Shown: positions 9,482-21,593 of the stretch, one piece after another
Position numbering within the stretch: position 1 is the first letter of the stretch
Layout: each line of letters starts with the position of its first letter
Notes under the pieces: generated by a model
The model's input: only the letters and a program-made list of their open reading frames with translations
Told to the model about the DNA's origin: nothing
The model's database searches: none
IMG/VR virus record: IMGVR_UViG_3300005336_000047
Span: 1-26,592 of that record
Source of the DNA: a virus
Length of the DNA stretch: 26,592 bases
Strand: one strand, 5' to 3'
Translations under genes and position numbers: made by a program

Positions 9482-10126
9482 TTACTGGCAGTCAATACCT
9501 GGCACCCAGTTCGCGTAGGAATTGGGGTCGTATTGTGGACACGGTGGAAGGTTATGAGGATTAAATGCGCTTATAGTAACCGGTTTGTCGAAATGTTCCA
9601 CCACAAAGACGGTTGGTCTATTCTGATATGTTCCTTCGCAGGTGGCGAAACCGACATTGGTATCGATTGTGTCTAATATGTTCTTCCTATGCTCAGGGCT
9701 GTTCATAAATAGCTGATTAATCGATTCAGCCGTCTGATTATCGAAGTTGGCGTCAATGTTCTCTGTCGCTTCCTGATAAGCTGGCACGAATTTTCTAAGG
9801 GTCATATACCAGGGATTGCCTGCAGGGTCATCATGGGAGTAATAACCTTTTGCCGCCATATCATCACATCTAGCTTGAGCTGAAGCATTTAGTGAATTAT
9901 CCAAAGAAAGTGGTGTAATACCACTGTTGGCTCTGTCTTGATTGGTGAGGGTCAATAGATTATTAAGGTTTATGGAGTTTTTATTTAGAACAGGCGTTAC
10001 TTGCGTATTTGTCGCATTAACGGACTGGTCGCCCCAGTAATTGGAACTTAGATAGGCGCAGATTATCAGGAAGGGTATAGCTAACAGAAACCATGTGGCC
10101 GTCAGAATCCTTTTCCTGATTTTCAT
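9482..10126 (-). CDS. Secreted/membrane-anchored CAP (SCP-like) domain protein
   Basis: 214 residues from ATG 10126. A longer TTG frame starts at 10162, but that codon is part of the -35 box, so the ATG is preferred. Residues 1-28 (MKIRKRILTATWFLLAIPFL onward) are a basic start plus hydrophobic core: a signal peptide or anchor. The CAP domain follows, with LLTLTNQDRANSGITPLSLD, GYYSHDDPAG, EATENI and SPEHRKNIL carrying the conserved His, Glu and Asn positions, then PTVFVVEHF. CAP proteins are extracellular and their biochemical role in bacteria is poorly defined. Its own near-consensus promoter and the terminator behind it make it an independent unit among virion genes, that is a moron-like cargo gene probably acting on the host surface. 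Confidence 0.85.
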   Translation of the reverse strand: MKIRKRILTATWFLLAIPFLIICAYLSSNYWGDQSVNATNTQVTPVLNKNSINLNNLLTLTNQDRANSGITPLSLDNSLNASAQARCDDMAAKGYYSHDDPAGNPWYMTLRKFVPAYQEATENIDANFDNQTAESINQLFMNSPEHRKNILDTIDTNVGFATCEGTYQNRPTVFVVEHFDKPVTISAFNPHNLPPCPQYDPNSYANWVPGIDCQ

Positions 10127-10133
10127 GAGAGTG

Positions 10134-10162
10134 ATTATACCAATTAACGGACTGTACGTCAA
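10134..10162 (-). promoter_or_regulatory. Sigma-70-like promoter of the CAP gene, apparently leaderless
   Basis: On the minus strand TTGACG (10162-10157), a 17-base spacer ending TGG, and TATAAT (10139-10134). Only seven bases separate TATAAT from the ATG at 10126, so the usual start point falls at or next to the ATG. No Shine-Dalgarno sequence is present. Confidence 0.8.
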
Positions 10163-10165
10163 GGA

Positions 10166-10717
10166 TTAGCGGTGTTCGTAAAGGGTTTCTGGCACTCTTA
10201 CGAACTTACCTGATTCGGCGACCGCCTTAGCATGGATGCCGTCGGCGTTATATGTCCTGTCGGTATAGCCTATTGTCAGCGCCAGCTCCCTTCTTACTAT
10301 GAAACTACCTCTGGTAATCTGTCCGACTACCGGCGCTACCTGGGCATTCTGTCCGACGTGGCGCGAATTAAAGTCACAGGCGATAATATCGCCATCTTCC
10401 CCTAATAAACGCTCCAGGAAGCGTTCTGAGGGCTTGTCATCGGTATTGGCATACCAAACATAGTCAGATGTGGCCAATTTAAGGCCTTGTTCGCACTTCT
10501 CAGCCCCCCAATCTTCTCTATGAGGAGATTTTACGATAATATCGCAGTCGATACCGTCTAGCTCCATGCAGCAGACACAAGCAATTACCTCATCGGGCTG
10601 GCGGGTTTGTTGTTTTAGGGAATCCAAGAACTCAATAAGCTGTTGTTTATCCTGATGACAAATGACTACAGCGCTAATCGTGCGTAACTTTGTAGTAGAT
10701 GTGGTTGTATCCGACAA
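10166..10717 (-). CDS. Family 2-like glycosyltransferase (short)
   Basis: 183 residues. The start is TTG 10717, inside the methyltransferase gene (44-base overlap), supported by a GGAG site nine bases upstream; no ATG occurs before residue 50. The N-terminal part matches GT-A glycosyltransferases: TISAVVICHQDKQQLIEFLD, then SLKQQTRQPDEVIA, and YVWYANTDDKPSERFLE with an acidic DD in place of the DXD metal site. GSFIVRRELALTIGY and DGIHAKAVAESGKFVRVPET resemble the later acceptor-side region. It is shorter than typical GT2 enzymes (220-300 residues) but has no obvious break. It would transfer a sugar from a nucleotide-sugar; donor and acceptor are unknown. It is the last gene of the sugar cassette. 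Confidence 0.7.
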   Translation of the reverse strand: MSDTTTSTTKLRTISAVVICHQDKQQLIEFLDSLKQQTRQPDEVIACVCCMELDGIDCDIIVKSPHREDWGAEKCEQGLKLATSDYVWYANTDDKPSERFLERLLGEDGDIIACDFNSRHVGQNAQVAPVVGQITRGSFIVRRELALTIGYTDRTYNADGIHAKAVAESGKFVRVPETLYEHR

Positions 10718-11234
10718 AGTCGTGTTCTCCTATCCTCTCGCCAGCTAAATCGTTCTTCCATAAACAGTCCAGCCATTCGCCTTCGCTGAACCGCCGGACA
10801 TGTAAATCATTGACGTCGTCTTCGCCCAGTAGGATGTCTATAAGTGCGAACTCCGTGAAGTTGCGTTTGACGTCCTGCAGGCATTCCGACACATAAGCTT
10901 TCGGTATATGGGTGAAGACAGATTGTGCGACTGCCATATCTCTTGGCACAACCATCAAATCACCCATCTCTAAAACCCTAAAGTCGTGTCCGGGGTAGCG
11001 TTTCTTTGCTAGCCTGATAGCTTCTGAGCTAATATCGACACCTAAGTAATCCTTTATTCCGGCTTCTAGCATCACTCCAACGCCACAACCATAATCTAGA
11101 ACGCTCATAGAGGGCTTATAACCGGCTTTTAGCCAGATTTGGTACTGGGGTTCCCAAACGAGCTGTCCGGCGCCGGTTTCGCCCATCCGCTGATAATGCT
11201 CATCATAGTGTTTGACATAATCCTTGCGATTCAT
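10674..11234 (-). CDS. SAM-dependent class I methyltransferase
   Basis: 186 residues from ATG 11234, which shares ATGA with the stop of the cytidylyltransferase gene. Motif I VLDYGCGVG is at about 45-53, the acidic ribose-binding strand end GVDIS at about 65-69, and the motif II-III region follows (EMGDLMVVPRDMAVAQSVFT). It fits the small class I (Rossmann) methyltransferases often found with glycosyltransferases, which methylate sugars or small metabolites. The target cannot be read from the sequence. Translation is probably coupled to its neighbours. A DNA methyltransferase is unlikely because no DPPY or PC motif is present. Confidence 0.8.
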   Translation of the reverse strand: MNRKDYVKHYDEHYQRMGETGAGQLVWEPQYQIWLKAGYKPSMSVLDYGCGVGVMLEAGIKDYLGVDISSEAIRLAKKRYPGHDFRVLEMGDLMVVPRDMAVAQSVFTHIPKAYVSECLQDVKRNFTEFALIDILLGEDDVNDLHVRRFSEGEWLDCLWKNDLAGERIGEHDFVGYNHIYYKVTHD

Positions 11235-11647
11235 TGGAGCCGGCCTTTCAGCTCAGTCGAGCTTAACGTACCAATCCTGGGGATATAGACCATGCTGATA
11301 CGTTTCTCGTCTAAATAATCCTGGGTCACATCAATCTGGGCATAGTAGTCTTTTCTGGCCCAGTCCGAACCGACTACTAGCACATCAGGCCCTACCGCTT
11401 CAATACATTCCCGTCCGGCCGAGGAGTTCTTGATAGTTTCATAGCCTAAAGCCCGGATGAGCAGTTCGCGCTCGTCATAGGAGTATTCGGGGGTCTTGCC
11501 TTTATATTGCTCGACGAACTCATCGGAGTTGATGCCGACTATGACTTTATCCCCATAGCGCTCGCACTCCTTGAATAAATAAGCATGGCCGAGATGCGGC
11601 GGAGAGAAGGTTCCGATAGTCAATACGGTGCGCTCAGGTAGTGACAT
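11231..11647 (-). CDS. Cytidylyltransferase-like nucleotidyltransferase (TagD-like)
   Basis: 138 residues from ATG 11647, overlapping the end of the upstream glycosyltransferase by 14 bases, with GGAG about 10 bases upstream. The nucleotidyltransferase motif GTFSPPHLGH is at 12-21 (HxGH-type), followed by DKVIVGINSDEFVEQYKGK and PDVLVVGSDWARKDYY. Near the end GTLSSTELKGRLQ replaces the usual RTxGISTT. Length equals that of TagD/GCT-type enzymes, which couple CTP with a phosphoalcohol or phosphosugar to give an activated CDP precursor. It probably supplies or links a group for the glycan built by the flanking transferases. The exact substrate is not deducible; ADP-heptose-type activity is an alternative. 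Confidence 0.75.
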   Translation of the reverse strand: MSLPERTVLTIGTFSPPHLGHAYLFKECERYGDKVIVGINSDEFVEQYKGKTPEYSYDERELLIRALGYETIKNSSAGRECIEAVGPDVLVVGSDWARKDYYAQIDVTQDYLDEKRISMVYIPRIGTLSSTELKGRLQ

Positions 11648-12710
11648 CTTCGATTATCTCCTTTAGCCTCATCCAATTAGTTGATATGTCCCAGTTCCGC
11701 TTCACCTCAATCTTAGCGTTGTGCGCCAGTTGTTTCCGCAGTTTGGCGTCCAATACCAGTCTCTCCAAGGCTTTGTACCAGCTATCGGCGTTGTTCTCGA
11801 CTAACAGTCCGGTCTTTCCATCCTCGACCGAACCTTTATACGGCTCGATGTTGGAAGCAATGAAAGCCGAGGGAATATAAGCCGACTCAAACCATTTGAT
11901 ATTTGACTTACATCTGTTAAATTGGTTGTCTTCGAGAGGGGCGCAGGATATGTCGGCGTTGATGTTCGGCCAGACTTCGGTGATGTATCGCTTGCCGGCG
12001 ATGCCATTGTGGTGGGTGTATCTTTGTTTGGGCAGATAAGCGTCAATCTTGATGCCGACGGTGCCGACCCGGACGTTCTTATACTTGTGCGTGATTCGCT
12101 GCAGGGCTTCTAGGAAACCTGTTTCAGATACATCCTTCTTGTGGGTGATGGAGCCGAAGTAGGAGATGACCACATCCTGATTCTCAAACTTTTTGTGTTT
12201 ATAATCCGACCCTATGTAATTGGGCAGGATGTAGGTCTTGCCCCGGACATGCTTGTCCAATTCCTTTTTTAGATTAGGTGTCGAGGTCACGACGTAATCA
12301 GAGTTCTCAATTATCCAGTGGACTTCTTTTAGGCCTTTGATGCCGCCGTAGGGGTCGTTCCAGAAGTTATTATGTTTCGGCAAGTGATAGAAGTCGTCAT
12401 CGATGTCCACTACTACTTTGGTGCCGAACTTCATGGAAACGAAGGACAGAACATCGAAAAGCCTTTCATCGACGAAGTACCCAGTCCAGATAATATCGTA
12501 CTGGCCGTATCTCTCGGCCATTTCCGCCAGGTCATCTGGTAAGTACCCCCCATCTGGCTGCTGCTTCGACTCATCTAGCAGATATGGGACATGGTCTATC
12601 TGCCAATCAACGTGCTTAGATAGTTCTTTAAACGGCCGAATAATCCGCCATAAGTCAATAGACTCCCTCGCCGCCAGCTTAGGATCACTATGAGCGAGAA
12701 GAATCTTCAT
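11634..12710 (-). CDS. Group 1 (GT4/GT-B-like) glycosyltransferase
   Basis: 358 residues from ATG 12710. The first strand MKILLAHSDPKLAARESIDL and the C-terminal nucleotide-sugar half look like GT-B glycosyltransferases: SYFGSITHKKDV, CAPLEDNQFNRCKSNIKWFE, AFIASNIEPYKGSVEDGKTG, then LLVENNADSWYKALERLVLD. DIIWTGYFVDERL and VVVDIDDDFYHLP lie in the N-terminal half. It begins four bases after the stop of a small virion gene with no strong ribosome site, so expression may depend on coupling. It is the first of four cassette genes with overlapping ends. It probably transfers a sugar to a glycan on the virion or host envelope; specificity is unknown. Confidence 0.8.
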   Translation of the reverse strand: MKILLAHSDPKLAARESIDLWRIIRPFKELSKHVDWQIDHVPYLLDESKQQPDGGYLPDDLAEMAERYGQYDIIWTGYFVDERLFDVLSFVSMKFGTKVVVDIDDDFYHLPKHNNFWNDPYGGIKGLKEVHWIIENSDYVVTSTPNLKKELDKHVRGKTYILPNYIGSDYKHKKFENQDVVISYFGSITHKKDVSETGFLEALQRITHKYKNVRVGTVGIKIDAYLPKQRYTHHNGIAGKRYITEVWPNINADISCAPLEDNQFNRCKSNIKWFESAYIPSAFIASNIEPYKGSVEDGKTGLLVENNADSWYKALERLVLDAKLRKQLAHNAKIEVKRNWDISTNWMRLKEIIEDVTT

Positions 12711-16200: not shown

Positions 16201-16516
16201 CAGCTACCGCCTTGGCCGCGTCTTCGACTTTAGTTAGATAGGCTTGCAAGATAGTGGCTACGGTCTGGTGGATGACGAACAGCTTGCCGACTTCTTCTAA
16301 GGACAGGTCTTCGGGCTTCTTGATGAACTCACCGGTGCGGAACTTATCGATATCAGCTTTCATATCGGCGGCTAACCGGGAAAAACCTTTATGGAACAGC
16401 AGAGACCCAAGCTCTTTTTCCTCATCCTGGGCTACTGATATAGCTTCATCCTGGGCGGCTTGAATAGGCTCGGCATTCAAAGCGAAGTCTTCTGGTGGTA
16501 GGGCGCTATTGTCCAT
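16175..16516 (-). CDS. Small helical protein after the portal
   Basis: 113 residues from ATG 16516, overlapping the portal stop by 11 bases. Acidic helical start (ALNAEPIQAAQDEAISVAQD), then KGFSRLAADMKADIDKFRTG, LSLEEVGKLFVIHQTVATIL and a Lys/Ala-rich tail (DAAKAVADAERAKLK). Function is unknown; translation is probably coupled to the portal gene. Confidence 0.5.
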   Translation of the reverse strand: MDNSALPPEDFALNAEPIQAAQDEAISVAQDEEKELGSLLFHKGFSRLAADMKADIDKFRTGEFIKKPEDLSLEEVGKLFVIHQTVATILQAYLTKVEDAAKAVADAERAKLK

Positions 16517-18452
16517 TGATAGGTGCTCCTTGCATCGGTGCGTTTACTTGACCCTGGGGAATCTGTGACTGGCCTTGCGGCTGCTGACCGAATAAGTGCT
16601 GAGCAACGGCTTGGATGTCCGGGTCTTGAATCTGGGCAAGTTGGTTAGGGTCTATCTGGGCCGGCTGCATCGGCAACTGTGAGCCCTGGTCGCTCATCTT
16701 GGTGATGATGGAGTCGGGGTCGTTAATCTTTAAGTTGTAGATATAGGACTTAAAGGCCGCGCCGAAGTTGAACTGGTATTGGTCGTTCTGCAGAAGCTGG
16801 TCGATAACTTGTGGGTTGCCCTCTAAATAAAGTGATATGACTTGTCCGAGCCCTTCGACTTGACCCTCTTCGTCATCACGCATCGTCGAGGAGGCATCGA
16901 CTATGAATTTGTAATTACCCTTGATCAGGGATTTGGCGATAGTCAGTTTGGCGGATTTACCCATTACTTTCATGAAGTCCGGTGCGTCATCCTTATCGTC
17001 GGAGAACTGTTGGGTTATCTGCTCGACATCCGAATCAAACACATGGAAGTTGATGGGTTTCTCCTGGTTCTCGGCTAAGAGATTAATCATGCCTTCCAAT
17101 AGGTCTTCGATGGTCTTTTCTAGCTGGAATCTATCCCAGTTGTCCCTGGCACTCTCCCGGTCCTGCTGCTGCTCGATTGCCTGGGGTGTCTTACCGAAGG
17201 CCGGATTAGAGGCTATCCGTTGTGGTGTCGTTGTGTCGGTCGAGCCGAATTGGTTGGCTAGCGAGGTCGACAAGAAACCGAAAGTCCCCTGGAAGTTATT
17301 AAGGGCGTCGCCGCCGCCGGAGTCATAAGGCATCACGCCCTGAGGGTCTTTCATCAGCCAGCGAGCACCGGCTTCCATCTTGATAGAACTCATGGTGACG
17401 TTAGACGGGTCGATTTTCAGCGGTTTGAAGATTGATAATTTAACACCGTCCAAGTAGAGGTTGATTAGCGAGTCTTTAGCTTTTTGCAGGGTGATACCCC
17501 GCTCGAAGTCTCCCAATCCCCAGATTGAATCGATTAATGGGAAGCACTGGCGCATAACCACTGGGATGCGGCCATTCTTATGCGGATTGGCAATCGACCG
17601 TAGAATCCCGCAGTCCTTATAATCCGGAGCAAATGTTATCCACTTGCCGCTGGTTCCTTTTTCATACTTGGTAACTATCTCTACCCTGGCGGCCGAGCCT
17701 TTATCGCCGTAAGGCCTGCCGAAAGTTCTAATATTCTCGATGGCTGATTTGCGTGAGGAATCTATATCCCTTGACGGGACAGAACCTTTTTTGGCGGCGT
17801 CAATCAGCTCCTGGACATTCTTGGTATTCCAGGAGGTTTTAGATTTCTTAGCGATGCCCTCTAGATATGAGATAGAGACGATGGTGCTAATCATCACCCA
17901 GTCACAATCCCTTATGGAGTTCTTGCCGGGCTGAGGATAGAAGTTTCGCGGTGCAATCAGCCAGAAGTCCGGGCCGATATATTCATCGTCTATGCGATAG
18001 TCATAAAGGATCGGGCAAGCACCGTATACTGACGAGTAAACACCGCTCATCCGCAGTTTAGTCAGCGAGTCCATCTGTGAGTTAGCGTTGGGCAGGATGT
18101 ACTTGTTCAGTACCAGATTCATCAAGGTAGCTGATTTATCATCATCGGCTGACAGCGAATAAATCGTGCCGGTCGGCAGTTGGGCGGCGACACGGGCCTG
18201 TCTCTCGAAGGCCAAGGTCGATAAATGCCCGTCTGTGACATGGCTGCGGGTGGATTTCTGGGAATATGAATCAGCCGCCCGGTTAATCAGCAGGCGTTCC
18301 CGGTCAGACCAGTTGGATTGAATCGGCCTAAGGGCGTCCCAGGCGGCTTGTTTCTGGCTTATGAGTTCGTCAATAGAGCCGTCGATATTGGCGGCCGCAG
18401 TATCATAACTGCTGTCTTCGCTATAACTGGATTGTTTGGGCTTGCGAGCCAA
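16506..18452 (-). CDS. Portal protein
   Basis: 648 residues. The start is TTG 18452, supported by AGGAG eight bases upstream. Portal-like text includes WDALRPIQSNWSDRERLLIN, TLAFERQARVAAQLPTGTIY, and FWLIAPRNFYPQPGKNSIRD with DCDWVMISTIVSISYLEGIA, followed by PFKPLKIDP-type membrane-free core strands and GDFERGITLQKAKDSLINLY (clip/wing region). The C-terminus is Gln/Pro-rich (QLPMQPAQIDPNQLAQIQDP). Size and layout resemble P22/SU10-type portals of short-tailed phages. Twelve copies would form the DNA entry vertex to which terminase and, later, the adaptor attach. Its leader region (18453-18650) is unusual: it holds a promoter, a GC-rich structured stretch and a second -10 element. Confidence 0.85.
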   Translation of the reverse strand: MARKPKQSSYSEDSSYDTAAANIDGSIDELISQKQAAWDALRPIQSNWSDRERLLINRAADSYSQKSTRSHVTDGHLSTLAFERQARVAAQLPTGTIYSLSADDDKSATLMNLVLNKYILPNANSQMDSLTKLRMSGVYSSVYGACPILYDYRIDDEYIGPDFWLIAPRNFYPQPGKNSIRDCDWVMISTIVSISYLEGIAKKSKTSWNTKNVQELIDAAKKGSVPSRDIDSSRKSAIENIRTFGRPYGDKGSAARVEIVTKYEKGTSGKWITFAPDYKDCGILRSIANPHKNGRIPVVMRQCFPLIDSIWGLGDFERGITLQKAKDSLINLYLDGVKLSIFKPLKIDPSNVTMSSIKMEAGARWLMKDPQGVMPYDSGGGDALNNFQGTFGFLSTSLANQFGSTDTTTPQRIASNPAFGKTPQAIEQQQDRESARDNWDRFQLEKTIEDLLEGMINLLAENQEKPINFHVFDSDVEQITQQFSDDKDDAPDFMKVMGKSAKLTIAKSLIKGNYKFIVDASSTMRDDEEGQVEGLGQVISLYLEGNPQVIDQLLQNDQYQFNFGAAFKSYIYNLKINDPDSIITKMSDQGSQLPMQPAQIDPNQLAQIQDPDIQAVAQHLFGQQPQGQSQIPQGQVNAPMQGAPINGQ

Positions 18453-18662: not shown

Positions 18663-18977
18663 TTAGAGTTTTTTGAAGTCCTGAACCTGCATCTGTTCCG
18701 CATTTCCATTCTTATCGATGGTGATAGTGAATCCAAGCGAAGTCGGCCGGTTAGTCTGTCTGGCGACCTCACAGGTGCCTTTGAAGAGCTTTAGGATGTC
18801 CGAGGCGGCCGAGACGTTGGGTTCTATGTCTGAGTACTTGATGCTCTGGACTTTGACCACGTCGGTATTGGAATAAGCCCCGACGTGTTTCTTGATATGG
18901 AGTTGAAGCTGTCCGAAGTCGGACAGACCATCTAATTGGGCGGCTACCATCTCCAATATGCGAGTTTTATCGTTCAT
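18663..18977 (-). CDS. Hypothetical protein after the terminase nuclease
   Basis: 104 residues from ATG 18977, sharing ATGA with the stop of the nuclease gene. N-terminal helices (RILEMVAAQLDGLSDFGQLQ) are followed by a beta-like C-terminus (SLGFTITIDKNGNAEQMQVQ). No family is recognised. It is the last gene of the packaging operon, ahead of promoter copy D. Confidence 0.5.
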   Translation of the reverse strand: MNDKTRILEMVAAQLDGLSDFGQLQLHIKKHVGAYSNTDVVKVQSIKYSDIEPNVSAASDILKLFKGTCEVARQTNRPTSLGFTITIDKNGNAEQMQVQDFKKL

Positions 18978-19630
18978 ATCTCATTCCATATCCTTTCCAT
19001 AACCGGGTCTTTAGCATAAAGCTGCCAGTTTTGGGTTTGTTCGGGTGATTCGGTCTGATAAAGTTGCCAAGCTCCAGCCAGCGACATAATCAAGTCGTCG
19101 TGGGCTCCTGATTCGGCTTGGGCTTTCCAAGACGATGAGGTTTGAGCCACAATGAAGCTAAACATCTCGTTGATGGTTGGACGGTCGTAGAGTGTAAGTA
19201 TTCGGCTATCAATAGCCTCTTTAAGCATCGAGAGCATCGCAGGACGCGTAGCCGTTGAAGTTGTCCAGCCGAGCTTAGAGGTGCTTTGAGTCGTACTCGT
19301 ACTGCCGATGTTATTCTTCTCCTGGTAAATCGAGTATTTACCCAATCGGTTAAGCGTCGCCAGACGTTCCAGCTCATAAACTCCTCCGTTATTTCTTTCA
19401 AATGCTATTACTGGTTTGACGTGCGTCTGGTCATAAATACGTTCTAGTTCATGATGTATGAGTGGTGTCATCTCGGTAGCGATAGTCTTAGAGTGGTAAA
19501 CAATAGGAACATCTAGTTTGGTCTTTGATAAGAATTGAGCAGCGCAGTAATCAAGCCCTCCGGCCGCGGTATCAGCGAAGACGCAGAAAAATTCACCTAT
19601 CTCAGGTTGACGGTATCTTCTAAAACTCAT
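18974..19630 (-). CDS. Large terminase, nuclease half (separate gene)
   Basis: 218 residues from ATG 19630, overlapping the zinc-ribbon gene by four bases. This is the RNase H-like nuclease of a large terminase: FADTAAGGLDY puts the first catalytic Asp at 20, IAFERNNGG gives Glu 78, and GAHDDLIMSLA gives Asp 178/179. KLGWTTSTATRPAMLSMLKE is the usual region between them. The protein starts where, in one-piece terminases, the inter-domain linker ends. It has no ATPase motifs; those are in the gene at 20300-21199. Together the halves total 517 residues, a normal full length. The nuclease would cut concatemeric DNA at the portal. Three small genes separate the halves. Confidence 0.88.
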   Translation of the reverse strand: MSFRRYRQPEIGEFFCVFADTAAGGLDYCAAQFLSKTKLDVPIVYHSKTIATEMTPLIHHELERIYDQTHVKPVIAFERNNGGVYELERLATLNRLGKYSIYQEKNNIGSTSTTQSTSKLGWTTSTATRPAMLSMLKEAIDSRILTLYDRPTINEMFSFIVAQTSSSWKAQAESGAHDDLIMSLAGAWQLYQTESPEQTQNWQLYAKDPVMERIWNEI

Positions 19631-19755
19631 TCCGGAATCTGCTCTACCAGAGGTTTAAGCCACGCCCCGCAGAAATCGCAGGCTCCGTGTTCATCGAATA
19701 ACAACAGGCAAGCCGGGCAGCGCCAAGCGATGATTACCGGTTCTTCATCTACCAT
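19627..19755 (-). CDS. Zinc-ribbon microprotein (42 aa) inside the terminase gene cluster
   Basis: A frame of 42 codons from ATG 19755, overlapping the upstream gene by 11 bases and sharing ATGA with the nuclease gene. The translation contains WRCPACLLLFDEHGACDFCG, two CxxC pairs 11 residues apart, a classic zinc ribbon. Its overlap with both neighbours supports real translation. It directly precedes the nuclease half, so a structural or DNA-contact role in packaging is possible, though unproven. Confidence 0.75.
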   Translation of the reverse strand: MVDEEPVIIAWRCPACLLLFDEHGACDFCGAWLKPLVEQIPE

Positions 19756-20011
19756 CTTGCCTCTTTAACTCAGCCCTTAGAAATTCAATCTCAGCTATTA
19801 ATAACTCGATGGCTTCGGTCAGACAGAAGATGTAGGTATATTGGTCTAGTGCTTCGGCTGATATCTCCTTAGCTAATTGGCGGATGGGCATTTCCCATAA
19901 CTTGCCGCCATGTTCTTCGACTCCCTTGGGATATTTAATATCCAGGTCTTTGATGAACTTGTCTTTGATTCGCAGCATATGGGCTAGGTGTTCGGGGGTC
20001 ATTTCAGCCAT
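19745..20011 (-). CDS. MazG-like/all-alpha NTP pyrophosphohydrolase-type small protein
   Basis: 88 residues from ATG 20011, overlapping the HAD gene by 13 bases. The segment KYPKGVEEHGGKLWEMP (27-43) followed by KEISAEALDQYTYI, with ExxD at 53-56, matches short phage MazG-like proteins, where acidic residues bind Mg and (d)NTPs. The C-terminus is a long helix (EAIELLIAEIEFLRAELKRQ). It would remove or recycle nucleotides. The family call rests on recalled motif similarity, and activity is uncertain because the protein is short. Confidence 0.55.
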   Translation of the reverse strand: MAEMTPEHLAHMLRIKDKFIKDLDIKYPKGVEEHGGKLWEMPIRQLAKEISAEALDQYTYIFCLTEAIELLIAEIEFLRAELKRQDGR

Positions 20012-20307
20012 GTTTCTTCCTCAGCGTTTATGGCGCGATCATCGACGTAGTGAATCGCAAGATATTTTCCCAAGATGATGCCGTTATACGGTATGCCGTG
20101 TTCCTGTAACCAGCGTTCTAATTGCTTAAAATCACTCCACGGCCGGGCGGAATGGATGATAATGTCATGTCCGGCCTCGTGGACTTCTTCTAACTTGTCG
20201 ATGTTCTCATGGATGGGTTGTCCGATTCCCGGCTCCGGCCAGATTTCCTCGGCGATTGTATTGTCGAAGTCGATGGCGTAGGGGAGTTTTAAGACCTCGT
20301 TAGACAT
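19999..20307 (-). CDS. HAD-like phosphatase
   Basis: 102 residues from ATG 20307 with AAGGAG upstream, overlapping the terminase ATPase stop by eight bases. HAD motif I IDFDNT (Asp 13 and Asp 15), motif II HSARPW (Ser 53), a Lys at 81 (LGK) and motif IV VDDRA (Asp 89/90) are all present in order, with almost no cap domain. This minimal HAD type is common in phages and acts on phosphate esters such as nucleotides or polynucleotide 3'-phosphates. It sits between the two terminase halves with a MazG-like gene, so a nucleotide-related role is the simplest reading. Confidence 0.8.
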   Translation of the reverse strand: MSNEVLKLPYAIDFDNTIAEEIWPEPGIGQPIHENIDKLEEVHEAGHDIIIHSARPWSDFKQLERWLQEHGIPYNGIILGKYLAIHYVDDRAINAEEETWLK

Positions 20308-21199
20308 GGGCTAGCTCCTTAACATCTTTAACTGATTCAAGGTAATAGCGCATAGCATCTTGGTCGAAGTAGGTATCGCCAGAGGTGATAAAGGCTTCTT
20401 CTGGTGTCATGGGATACTCCTGCGGGCCAAGGCGGCCTAAGTCATTCCGCTTTTTTGCTATATACTCCTGCGAGTATTCCCATAGTGGTGAGTAGAATAA
20501 CGCGGCGAAGTTATTGCTCCCTAGGACGGCTTCATCCCAGGTTGATTTATAGCTATTGAATCCGTTTGCGGTGGTCTCAAGTATCTTATGGGCTTTAGGC
20601 AGACAAGCTTCGCCTACGCCAGCCATAAGCTGTAGGAGATCTGCAAGCGAAACCTCAGTCAAGTGTAGGAATGTTATGTCATCGCCACGACCGAACGATG
20701 TGTTTCCGAATGTCCCAACCTGTAATATGTTCTGGTAATAGTCATAACCACCGTCGGCATTATTTACTTTGCCCTCTAGGGCCATTGTATTTTTAGAGTT
20801 ATACTTTAGATTAACTTTTACTTTATTAATCTGTTCATAGGATTTGATGTAATACTTAGCTCTAGCAAGCTGCTTCTCTGATGCGCCTTGCTCAAAGGAC
20901 ATTGATACGCACTTTTCGTTCCGGCCAGTCAAGAATTTAGTTGTGCCTATCCCTAAAGCATCTGACGAGAAACCCATTTTCCTAGCCTTCAGAACTAATA
21001 TGTCTAAGTAAAATTGCAGATGCCAGTTCAAACTGTGTTGAGCTGGATTAACCTTAAACATAACCGGCTCCTGCTCTTTGTTCACGATTTTGAAGTTATC
21101 GCCCATAAAATCTTCGTATCCCTGAGCATTAAAGCCAGTATCAACCGTTGGAGGTTTATTCATTAAAGGATTCGGGTATTTTGATAAATCAAATGTCAT
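20300..21199 (-). CDS. Large terminase, ATPase half (separate gene)
   Basis: 299 residues from ATG 21199, overlapping the small-subunit gene by 11 bases. ATPase motifs of a large terminase: a Walker A-like KARKMGFSSD at 71-80, Walker B DITFLHLTEVS at about 174-184 (catalytic Glu 182; Thr in place of the usual Asp/Ser), and coupling motif LETTANG at 207-213. EEAFITSGDTYFDQDAMRYY is the end of the ATPase domain, and the protein stops there with no nuclease residues. The nuclease lies three genes downstream. Its stop overlaps the HAD gene, so the break is not a simple frameshift. It powers DNA translocation at the portal. Confidence 0.87.
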   Translation of the reverse strand: MTFDLSKYPNPLMNKPPTVDTGFNAQGYEDFMGDNFKIVNKEQEPVMFKVNPAQHSLNWHLQFYLDILVLKARKMGFSSDALGIGTTKFLTGRNEKCVSMSFEQGASEKQLARAKYYIKSYEQINKVKVNLKYNSKNTMALEGKVNNADGGYDYYQNILQVGTFGNTSFGRGDDITFLHLTEVSLADLLQLMAGVGEACLPKAHKILETTANGFNSYKSTWDEAVLGSNNFAALFYSPLWEYSQEYIAKKRNDLGRLGPQEYPMTPEEAFITSGDTYFDQDAMRYYLESVKDVKELAHV

Positions 21200-21593
21200 A
21201 TTTATCTTTCTGATCCTGAATTACCTGTACGAAGTTAAATGTATTGCCCTGTACGTCTTGATTGACTCCTAGAAGCTTCAGGGCGCGGTCTGATGCTTTT
21301 AGCTGAGTTCCCAGGTCTTCGGTTACTTCCCCAGTGAACTCATTAAACTTGACGGCTTTTAATCCTTTACCGATTGGAGCTATGGCAGAATCAAGGGTGA
21401 TGTCGTGTTTTTGGAGTATTGGTTCTAGCTTTTCAACTATCTGAGGTTTTCTTAAGTTTTCACTCGCTATTACTGCGGCGGTATTCTCGTCTTTAGTATC
21501 GTAGGCTTCAAGTGCTGCTTTAGTTCCAGATTTGCCTTTTGCTACGCCTTCTACGAACTTCTTTTGCTTTAGCGTTAATTTAGGCTTGCTCAT
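21189..21593 (-). CDS. Small terminase subunit
   Basis: 134 residues from ATG 21593, which overlaps the upstream stop by four bases. The N-terminal LTLKQKKFVEGVAKGKSGTK and AALEAYDTKDENTAAVIASE then LRKPQIVEKLEPIL match the helix-turn-helix start of phage small terminases. The C-terminal part carries TQLKASDRALKLLGVNQD and a Gln-rich end. It recognises the packaging site and loads the ATPase half, whose gene follows with an overlap. Confidence 0.8.
   Translation of the reverse strand: MSKPKLTLKQKKFVEGVAKGKSGTKAALEAYDTKDENTAAVIASENLRKPQIVEKLEPILQKHDITLDSAIAPIGKGLKAVKFNEFTGEVTEDLGTQLKASDRALKLLGVNQDVQGNTFNFVQVIQDQKDKYDI

What the first reader, a model, noticed from the sequence alone, without database searches (positions are those of the whole stretch)
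18974..21199. Large terminase split into separate ATPase and nuclease genes with three genes between
The ATPase motifs (Walker A-like, HLTEVS, ETTANG) are in one 299-residue gene that stops at the end of the ATPase domain. The RNase H-like nuclease triad (Asp 20, Glu 78, Asp 178/179) is in a separate 218-residue gene. A HAD phosphatase, a MazG-like protein and a zinc ribbon lie between them, all with overlapping start/stop codons. Known broken terminases usually involve inteins, introns or frameshifts; here no intein or homing nuclease is seen. The intact overlaps and intact motifs suggest a stable split enzyme, perhaps reassembled on the portal, with the zinc ribbon as a possible bridging partner.
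Basis: partly seen in the sequence, partly recalled or inferred. Interest (0 to 1): 0.78.

Follow-up and report, generated by a model that had tools for sequence, protein, structure and literature searches.

The report
Two-gene split DNA-packaging terminase
A large group of uncultured phages encodes the two halves of its DNA-packaging motor, the ATP-driven pump and the DNA-cutting nuclease, as separate genes, although the related phage T4 motor stops pumping when cut at the same place in the laboratory.

Summary
The 299-residue protein is a complete T4 gp17-type terminase ATPase domain, and the 218-residue protein is the matching RNase H-fold nuclease domain. All catalytic residues are intact and three overlapping genes lie between them. 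It is not an error: among 106 distinct relatives, 101 have the halves on separate ORFs (75 adjacent, 26 with DNA between) and only 5 have them fused. Both halves are under strong purifying selection. No second ATPase or nuclease of this family was found in 20 relatives' contigs of 27-45 kb. I found no intron and no conserved frameshift.

The zinc ribbon and other intervening genes are lineage-specific and are missing from most split relatives, so the 'bridging' idea is not supported. Several relatives carry HNH endonuclease genes in the same gap. The two halves have strongly discordant family trees, so they have been exchanged between lineages as separate modules.

A split large terminase is already reported in cultured Arthrobacter cluster AY phages, in an unrelated terminase family. 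Splitting T4 gp17 at its linker kills translocation in vitro. This is therefore a new, widespread variant of a known but little-noticed kind. How the halves join is not shown.

The parts
21189..21593 (-). small terminase (TerS)
   Evidence: Pfam Terminase_2 E 3.6e-8, above its cut-off; PHROG 51 E 3e-14
20300..21199 (-). stand-alone terminase ATPase subunit, 299 aa
   Evidence: profile of 66 relatives matches T4 gp17 E 3.5e-9; AF2 pLDDT 91.9; Foldseek best hit T4 gp17 ATPase E 1.8e-10; Z 20-23 to TerL ATPase domains
19999..20307 (-). intervening gene: HAD-like phosphatase, 102 aa
   Evidence: Pfam Hydrolase_3 E 8e-5, above its cut-off; PHROG 1238 E 4e-22
19745..20011 (-). intervening gene: 88 aa protein, no family match
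   Evidence: no Pfam or PHROG family
19627..19755 (-). intervening gene: 42 aa CxxC...CxxC zinc-ribbon-like protein
   Evidence: sequence; no significant family match
18974..19630 (-). stand-alone terminase nuclease subunit, 218 aa
   Evidence: phmmer to RB49 gp17 nuclease E 4e-6, profile E 1.8e-10; AF2 pLDDT 90.5; Foldseek best hit T4 gp17 E 6e-10
18663..18977 (-). 104 aa gene overlapping the nuclease stop; unknown
   Evidence: no convincing family match
16506..18452 (-). portal protein
   Evidence: Pfam SU10_portal E 2.6e-7, 29.9 bits against a cut-off of 30

Best explanation
This is a genuine two-polypeptide large terminase. The T4 gp17-type enzyme has been cut into two genes exactly at the flexible hinge between its ATPase and nuclease domains, with no loss of either domain. 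The ATPase subunit drives DNA translocation and the nuclease subunit makes the initiation and headful cuts. The two most likely assemble non-covalently at the portal through the domain interface that covalent terminases already have. Shown: homology, intact active sites, conservation, purifying selection, independent inheritance of the halves. Inferred: joint assembly and the division of labour. Because the genes are separate, other genes (including HNH endonucleases) collect in the gap, and the halves are exchanged between phage lineages as modules.
For: Separate ORFs in 101 of 106 distinct relatives, in viral contigs and MAGs. In an intact CRP-7-type control family only 2 of 133 look split. 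Folds and profiles match T4 gp17 for each half; the model aligns to T4 residues 41-360, up to the hinge. Catalytic residues invariant. Ka/Ks 0.03-0.09 for both halves in six informative pairs. One ATPase and one nuclease match in each of 20 contigs of 27-45 kb, 18 of them split. Nuclease starts lie in all three frames relative to the ATPase, with a ribosome-site-like motif in 41% against 12% background. Discordant trees: AU p from 2e-4 to 1e-100.
Against: No physical interaction, packaging or cleavage has been measured or modelled. For T4 gp17, splitting at the linker abolished translocation while each half kept its own activity (PMC3012670), so either this family has compensating contacts or the halves do not form one motor. 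No complete genome was available; the longest contigs are classed linear.
Confidence: 0.85

Rival explanations
1. The halves never form one motor. The ATPase alone (with portal and TerS) pumps DNA, and the nuclease acts as a separate maturation enzyme that cuts before and after packaging.
For: T4 gp17 halves keep their separate activities when split, and translocation is lost (PMC3012670). The halves have different evolutionary histories. TerS distances track the nuclease (r 0.42) and not the ATPase (r 0.02), n = 38.
Against: In the T4 model the C-domain carries the translocation groove (PMC3012670). Fused relatives exist inside the same clade, so a joint unit is still usable. The two genes almost always stay in order and near each other.
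Confidence: 0.2
2. The polypeptides are joined after all, by programmed frameshifting, trans-splicing or intron removal.
For: 44 of 70 adjacent pairs share one frame relation. Phage terL genes interrupted by introns or inteins are known (Jug phages PMC12363816; Mic1 PMC7156551).
Against: The rest use the other two frames. 26 relatives have 135-1,315 bp between the two open frames, usually filled by other genes. No Rfam match in the window or in 12 gap-bearing relatives. No intein halves at the junction ends.
Confidence: 0.04
3. Sequencing or assembly error, or a decaying gene.
For: The window is a metagenomic fragment.
Against: An identical second contig, the family-wide split, Ka/Ks well below 1 in relatives and clean gene overlaps.
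Confidence: 0.01
4. Origin only: insertion of a homing endonuclease at the hinge split the gene, and the endonuclease was later lost or replaced by other cargo in most lineages.
For: HNH_3 genes in the gap of L012, L019, L031, L052, and a NinG-like nuclease in L020. Precedents: nrdA of phage Aeh1 split by mobE, and gene 43 of Aeromonas phages (PMC2988022).
Against: 75 relatives have no insert, and HNH genes occur in few. Cargo may have entered a gap that already existed.
Confidence: 0.35

Closest known systems
Arthrobacter cluster AY phages (BillyTP, BlueShadow) and Gordonia phage Ewald: terminase ATPase domain and nuclease domain in two consecutive genes (PMC11920828, PMC12820723)
   Same: Large terminase encoded as separate ATPase and nuclease genes; in the cluster AY phages these lie next to TerS and portal.
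   Different: Different terminase family: no significant match to either profile of this family (best E 0.07), and the AY nuclease is Pfam TerL_nuclease. The AY genes are adjacent. Here other genes may lie between, and the halves have separate histories. Most likely an independent split.
Phage T4 gp17 (intact large terminase)
   Same: Closest solved relative of both halves by sequence profile and Foldseek; same fold, same motifs, cut at its hinge.
   Different: One polypeptide; artificial splitting at the linker abolishes translocation (PMC3012670).
Split phage enzymes reassembled without splicing: nrdA of Aeh1 (mobE), gene 43 of Aeromonas phage 25 (PMC2988022)
   Same: One enzyme made from two polypeptides that co-assemble; homing-endonuclease link.
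   Different: Other enzymes, few phages; there the endonuclease still lies in the gap.
[quoted passage not shown]
   Same: terL in pieces.
   Different: There splicing restores one coding region; here no intron was found.

Membership tests
T4 gp17-type large terminase (Terminase_6N) | ASCE ATPase with terminase Walker A, Walker B and coupling motif, TerL ATPase fold | tested here: met
   Invariant motifs; profile E 3.5e-9 to gp17; Terminase_6N matched by 6 of 66 members, best E 7.5e-9; Z 20-23. The window's own sequence has no Pfam match on its own.
T4 gp17-type large terminase (Terminase_6N) | RNase H-fold nuclease with Asp/Glu/Asp triad | tested here: met
   D20, E78, D178/D179 invariant; gp17 nuclease profile E 1.8e-10; Foldseek E 6e-10
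T4 gp17-type large terminase (Terminase_6N) | both domains on one polypeptide | tested here: not met
   Separate ORFs in the window and in 101 of 106 relatives
T4 gp17-type large terminase (Terminase_6N) | gene neighbourhood TerS - TerL - portal | tested here: met
   TerS just upstream, portal downstream of the nuclease
T4 gp17-type large terminase (Terminase_6N) | ATP-driven DNA packaging activity | not testable with these tools
   needs biochemistry
Cluster AY-type split terminase | ATPase and nuclease in separate genes | tested here: met
Cluster AY-type split terminase | same protein family | tested here: not met
   No significant profile match, best E 0.07 for the ATPase and none for the nuclease
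Homing-endonuclease-split gene | endonuclease gene between the two halves | tested here: inconclusive
   None in the window; HNH_3 in four relatives
Intron- or intein-split terL | group I/II intron or split intein at the junction | tested here: not met
   No Rfam match in the window or 12 relatives; both proteins end at the domain edges

The most novel reading that the evidence does not exclude
In this phage group the covalent hinge of the T4-type packaging motor is dispensable. The motor is a two-subunit machine whose ATPase and nuclease/translocation subunits dock non-covalently and are freely reassorted between lineages, so force coupling must run through the docking surface and not through the linker.
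Probability: 0.5. Interest if true: 0.75.

Novelty: new variant of a known kind. Interest (0 to 1): 0.6.

Why it matters
Packaging models for T4-type motors couple ATP hydrolysis to DNA movement through the hinge between the two terminase domains, and cutting T4 gp17 there destroys translocation. A large natural group that is cut at the same place gives a direct way to test whether a covalent link is needed. The natural exchange of halves also shows which ATPase and nuclease pairs are compatible. For annotation, it warns that single-gene TerL models and TerL trees will miss or mis-place these phages.

Tried and rejected
Assembly or sequencing error: rejected. Hidden second terminase: none found with Terminase_6N or this family's own profiles in 20 contigs; the one Terminase_6N hit is the ATPase itself. 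Intron: no Rfam match. Zinc ribbon or HAD as conserved partner: not conserved in relatives; L169 alone has another HAD-like gene in the gap. Programmed frameshift: all three frames are used. Portal as the partner of one half only: portal distances correlate weakly with both (0.24 and 0.22). Rank-correlation contrast with a fused control was not clean, because the fused set spans a narrow identity range (0.44 against 0.34); the spread of identity differences is clearer. Host assignment: not resolved; MAG hits are weakly labelled. The first fused-control scan with CRP-7 alone gave mostly near-identical copies. KU647628 turned out to be phage Mudcat with an intact terminase, a wrong guess of accession. 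Literature: ten paper searches found no split T4-type terminase; one led to cluster AY.

Full report
OBSERVATION. The window is a 26,592-base linear virus record. On the minus strand the order is TerS (21189-21593), ATPase (20300-21199), HAD-like protein (19999-20307), an 88-residue protein (19745-20011), a 42-residue zinc ribbon (19627-19755), nuclease (18974-19630), a 104-residue protein, then portal (16506-18452). Neighbouring genes overlap by 4 to 13 bases from TerS to the 104-residue gene, and a second contig is identical over 4,790 bases. The 'MazG-like' label of the 88-residue protein is not supported by Pfam or PHROGs.

WHAT THE TWO PROTEINS ARE. Single-sequence searches are weak: the ATPase has no sequence hit among solved structures, and the nuclease hits the RB49 gp17 nuclease at E 4e-6. 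Profiles of 66 relatives match phage T4 gp17 at E 3.5e-9 (ATPase) and the RB49 gp17 nuclease at E 1.8e-10 (nuclease). AlphaFold models are confident (pLDDT 91.9 and 90.5). Their best Foldseek matches are the T4 gp17 ATPase domain and T4 gp17. The ATPase model aligns to gp17 residues 41-360, so the gene ends at the hinge. In the fused relative L039 the two matched regions are 3 residues apart, so the split removes nothing. Motif residues are invariant in all 66 sequences of each half.

IT IS A FAMILY TRAIT. Searches of viral contigs and bacterial genome contigs gave 106 distinct loci with both halves. 101 are split (75 adjacent or overlapping, 26 with 135 to 1,315 bp between the open frames) and 5 are fused. 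In a control family of intact terminases only 2 of 133 look split. The loci were found by similarity to the window's halves or to a fused member; a fused relative would have been found as easily, but several hundred further relatives were matched and not examined. Both halves are under strong purifying selection (Ka/Ks 0.03-0.09 in pairs with usable Ks). Twenty contigs of 27-45 kb each carry one ATPase and one nuclease match (18 split, 2 fused) and no other Terminase_6N hit apart from one ATPase itself. All are classed linear, so absence elsewhere in the genome is not proven.

HOW THE HALVES ARE EXPRESSED. Nuclease starts are in all three frames relative to the ATPase (44, 20 and 6 of 70 adjacent pairs). 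A ribosome-site-like motif precedes about 41% of them against 12% at random positions. No Rfam family matches the window or 12 gap-bearing relatives. Separate translation is therefore the simplest reading.

THE GAP. Genes between the halves differ from lineage to lineage: HNH_3 endonucleases in L012, L019, L031 and L052, a NinG-like protein in L020, methyltransferases, nucleotidyltransferases, a HAD-like protein in L169. The window's zinc ribbon has no match among the relatives searched except in the identical contig, so it is unlikely to be a required bridge. Phage enzymes split by homing endonucleases and reassembled from two polypeptides are known (PMC2988022); that is a plausible origin but is not shown.

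SEPARATE HISTORIES. The ATPase tree has a clade of 21 loci, including the window type, with full support. The nuclease data reject that grouping (12 members tested, AU p 9e-101), and the ATPase data reject the nuclease clades L002/L007/L010/L050 (p 2e-12), L012/L013/L018 (p 1e-6) and L022/L028/L031 (p 2e-4). Groups were named from one half and tested on the other. Example: window type against L050 has nuclease 82%, portal 73%, ATPase 41% identical. Distances agree within each half (0.78 and 0.60) but much less across the split (0.26 to 0.38). In the fused control the standard deviation of the ATPase-minus-nuclease identity is 0.049 against 0.103, and the largest difference is 0.16 against 0.41; that control is one lineage of 24 thinned sequences. 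Fused L039 and L040 and the differently fused L042 lie inside the ATPase clade, so re-fusion or mixed ancestry has occurred; the direction is not resolved.

MECHANISM. T4 models couple the ATPase to the C-domain through the hinge, and a review states that splitting gp17 at the linker kept both enzyme activities but lost translocation (PMC3012670). My best account is that in this family the same two domains dock non-covalently at the portal (inferred). The main rival is that the ATPase pumps alone and the nuclease only cuts.

NOVELTY. Split large terminases are already reported in Arthrobacter cluster AY phages (PMC11920828, PMC12820723), and are also annotated in Gordonia phage Ewald. That is a different terminase family with no significant match to these profiles. 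No description of a split T4-type terminase was found in the paper library, which covers open-licence papers only. The class is therefore a new variant of a known kind.

Noticed in passing
L020:4912-6555: The nuclease gene of this relative carries an in-frame intein (Hint_2 E 4e-8) inserted directly after the catalytic HDD of the active site.
   Followed up: partly
L042:1704-3143: A window-type ATPase domain is fused to a nuclease domain not recognised by this family's profile: apparently a natural nuclease swap.
   Followed up: partly
L016:524-1195: The nuclease frame has an in-frame TAG where relatives have Gln; possible stop-codon reassignment or an error.
   Followed up: partly
38 relatives with a detectable TerS: Small-terminase distances follow the nuclease (r 0.42) and not the ATPase (r 0.02).
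   Followed up: partly
window 10166-12710: A cassette of glycosyltransferase, cytidylyltransferase-like and methyltransferase genes lies among the structural genes.
   Followed up: no
window 9482-10162: A 226 aa CAP/SCP-like secreted protein (PHROG 'sporulation protein', E 1.5e-16) lies in the structural region.
   Followed up: no
L108 and L169: A fused and a split relative share ATPase (74%) and portal (64%) but have different nucleases (46%); the split one has a HAD-like gene in the gap.
   Followed up: no
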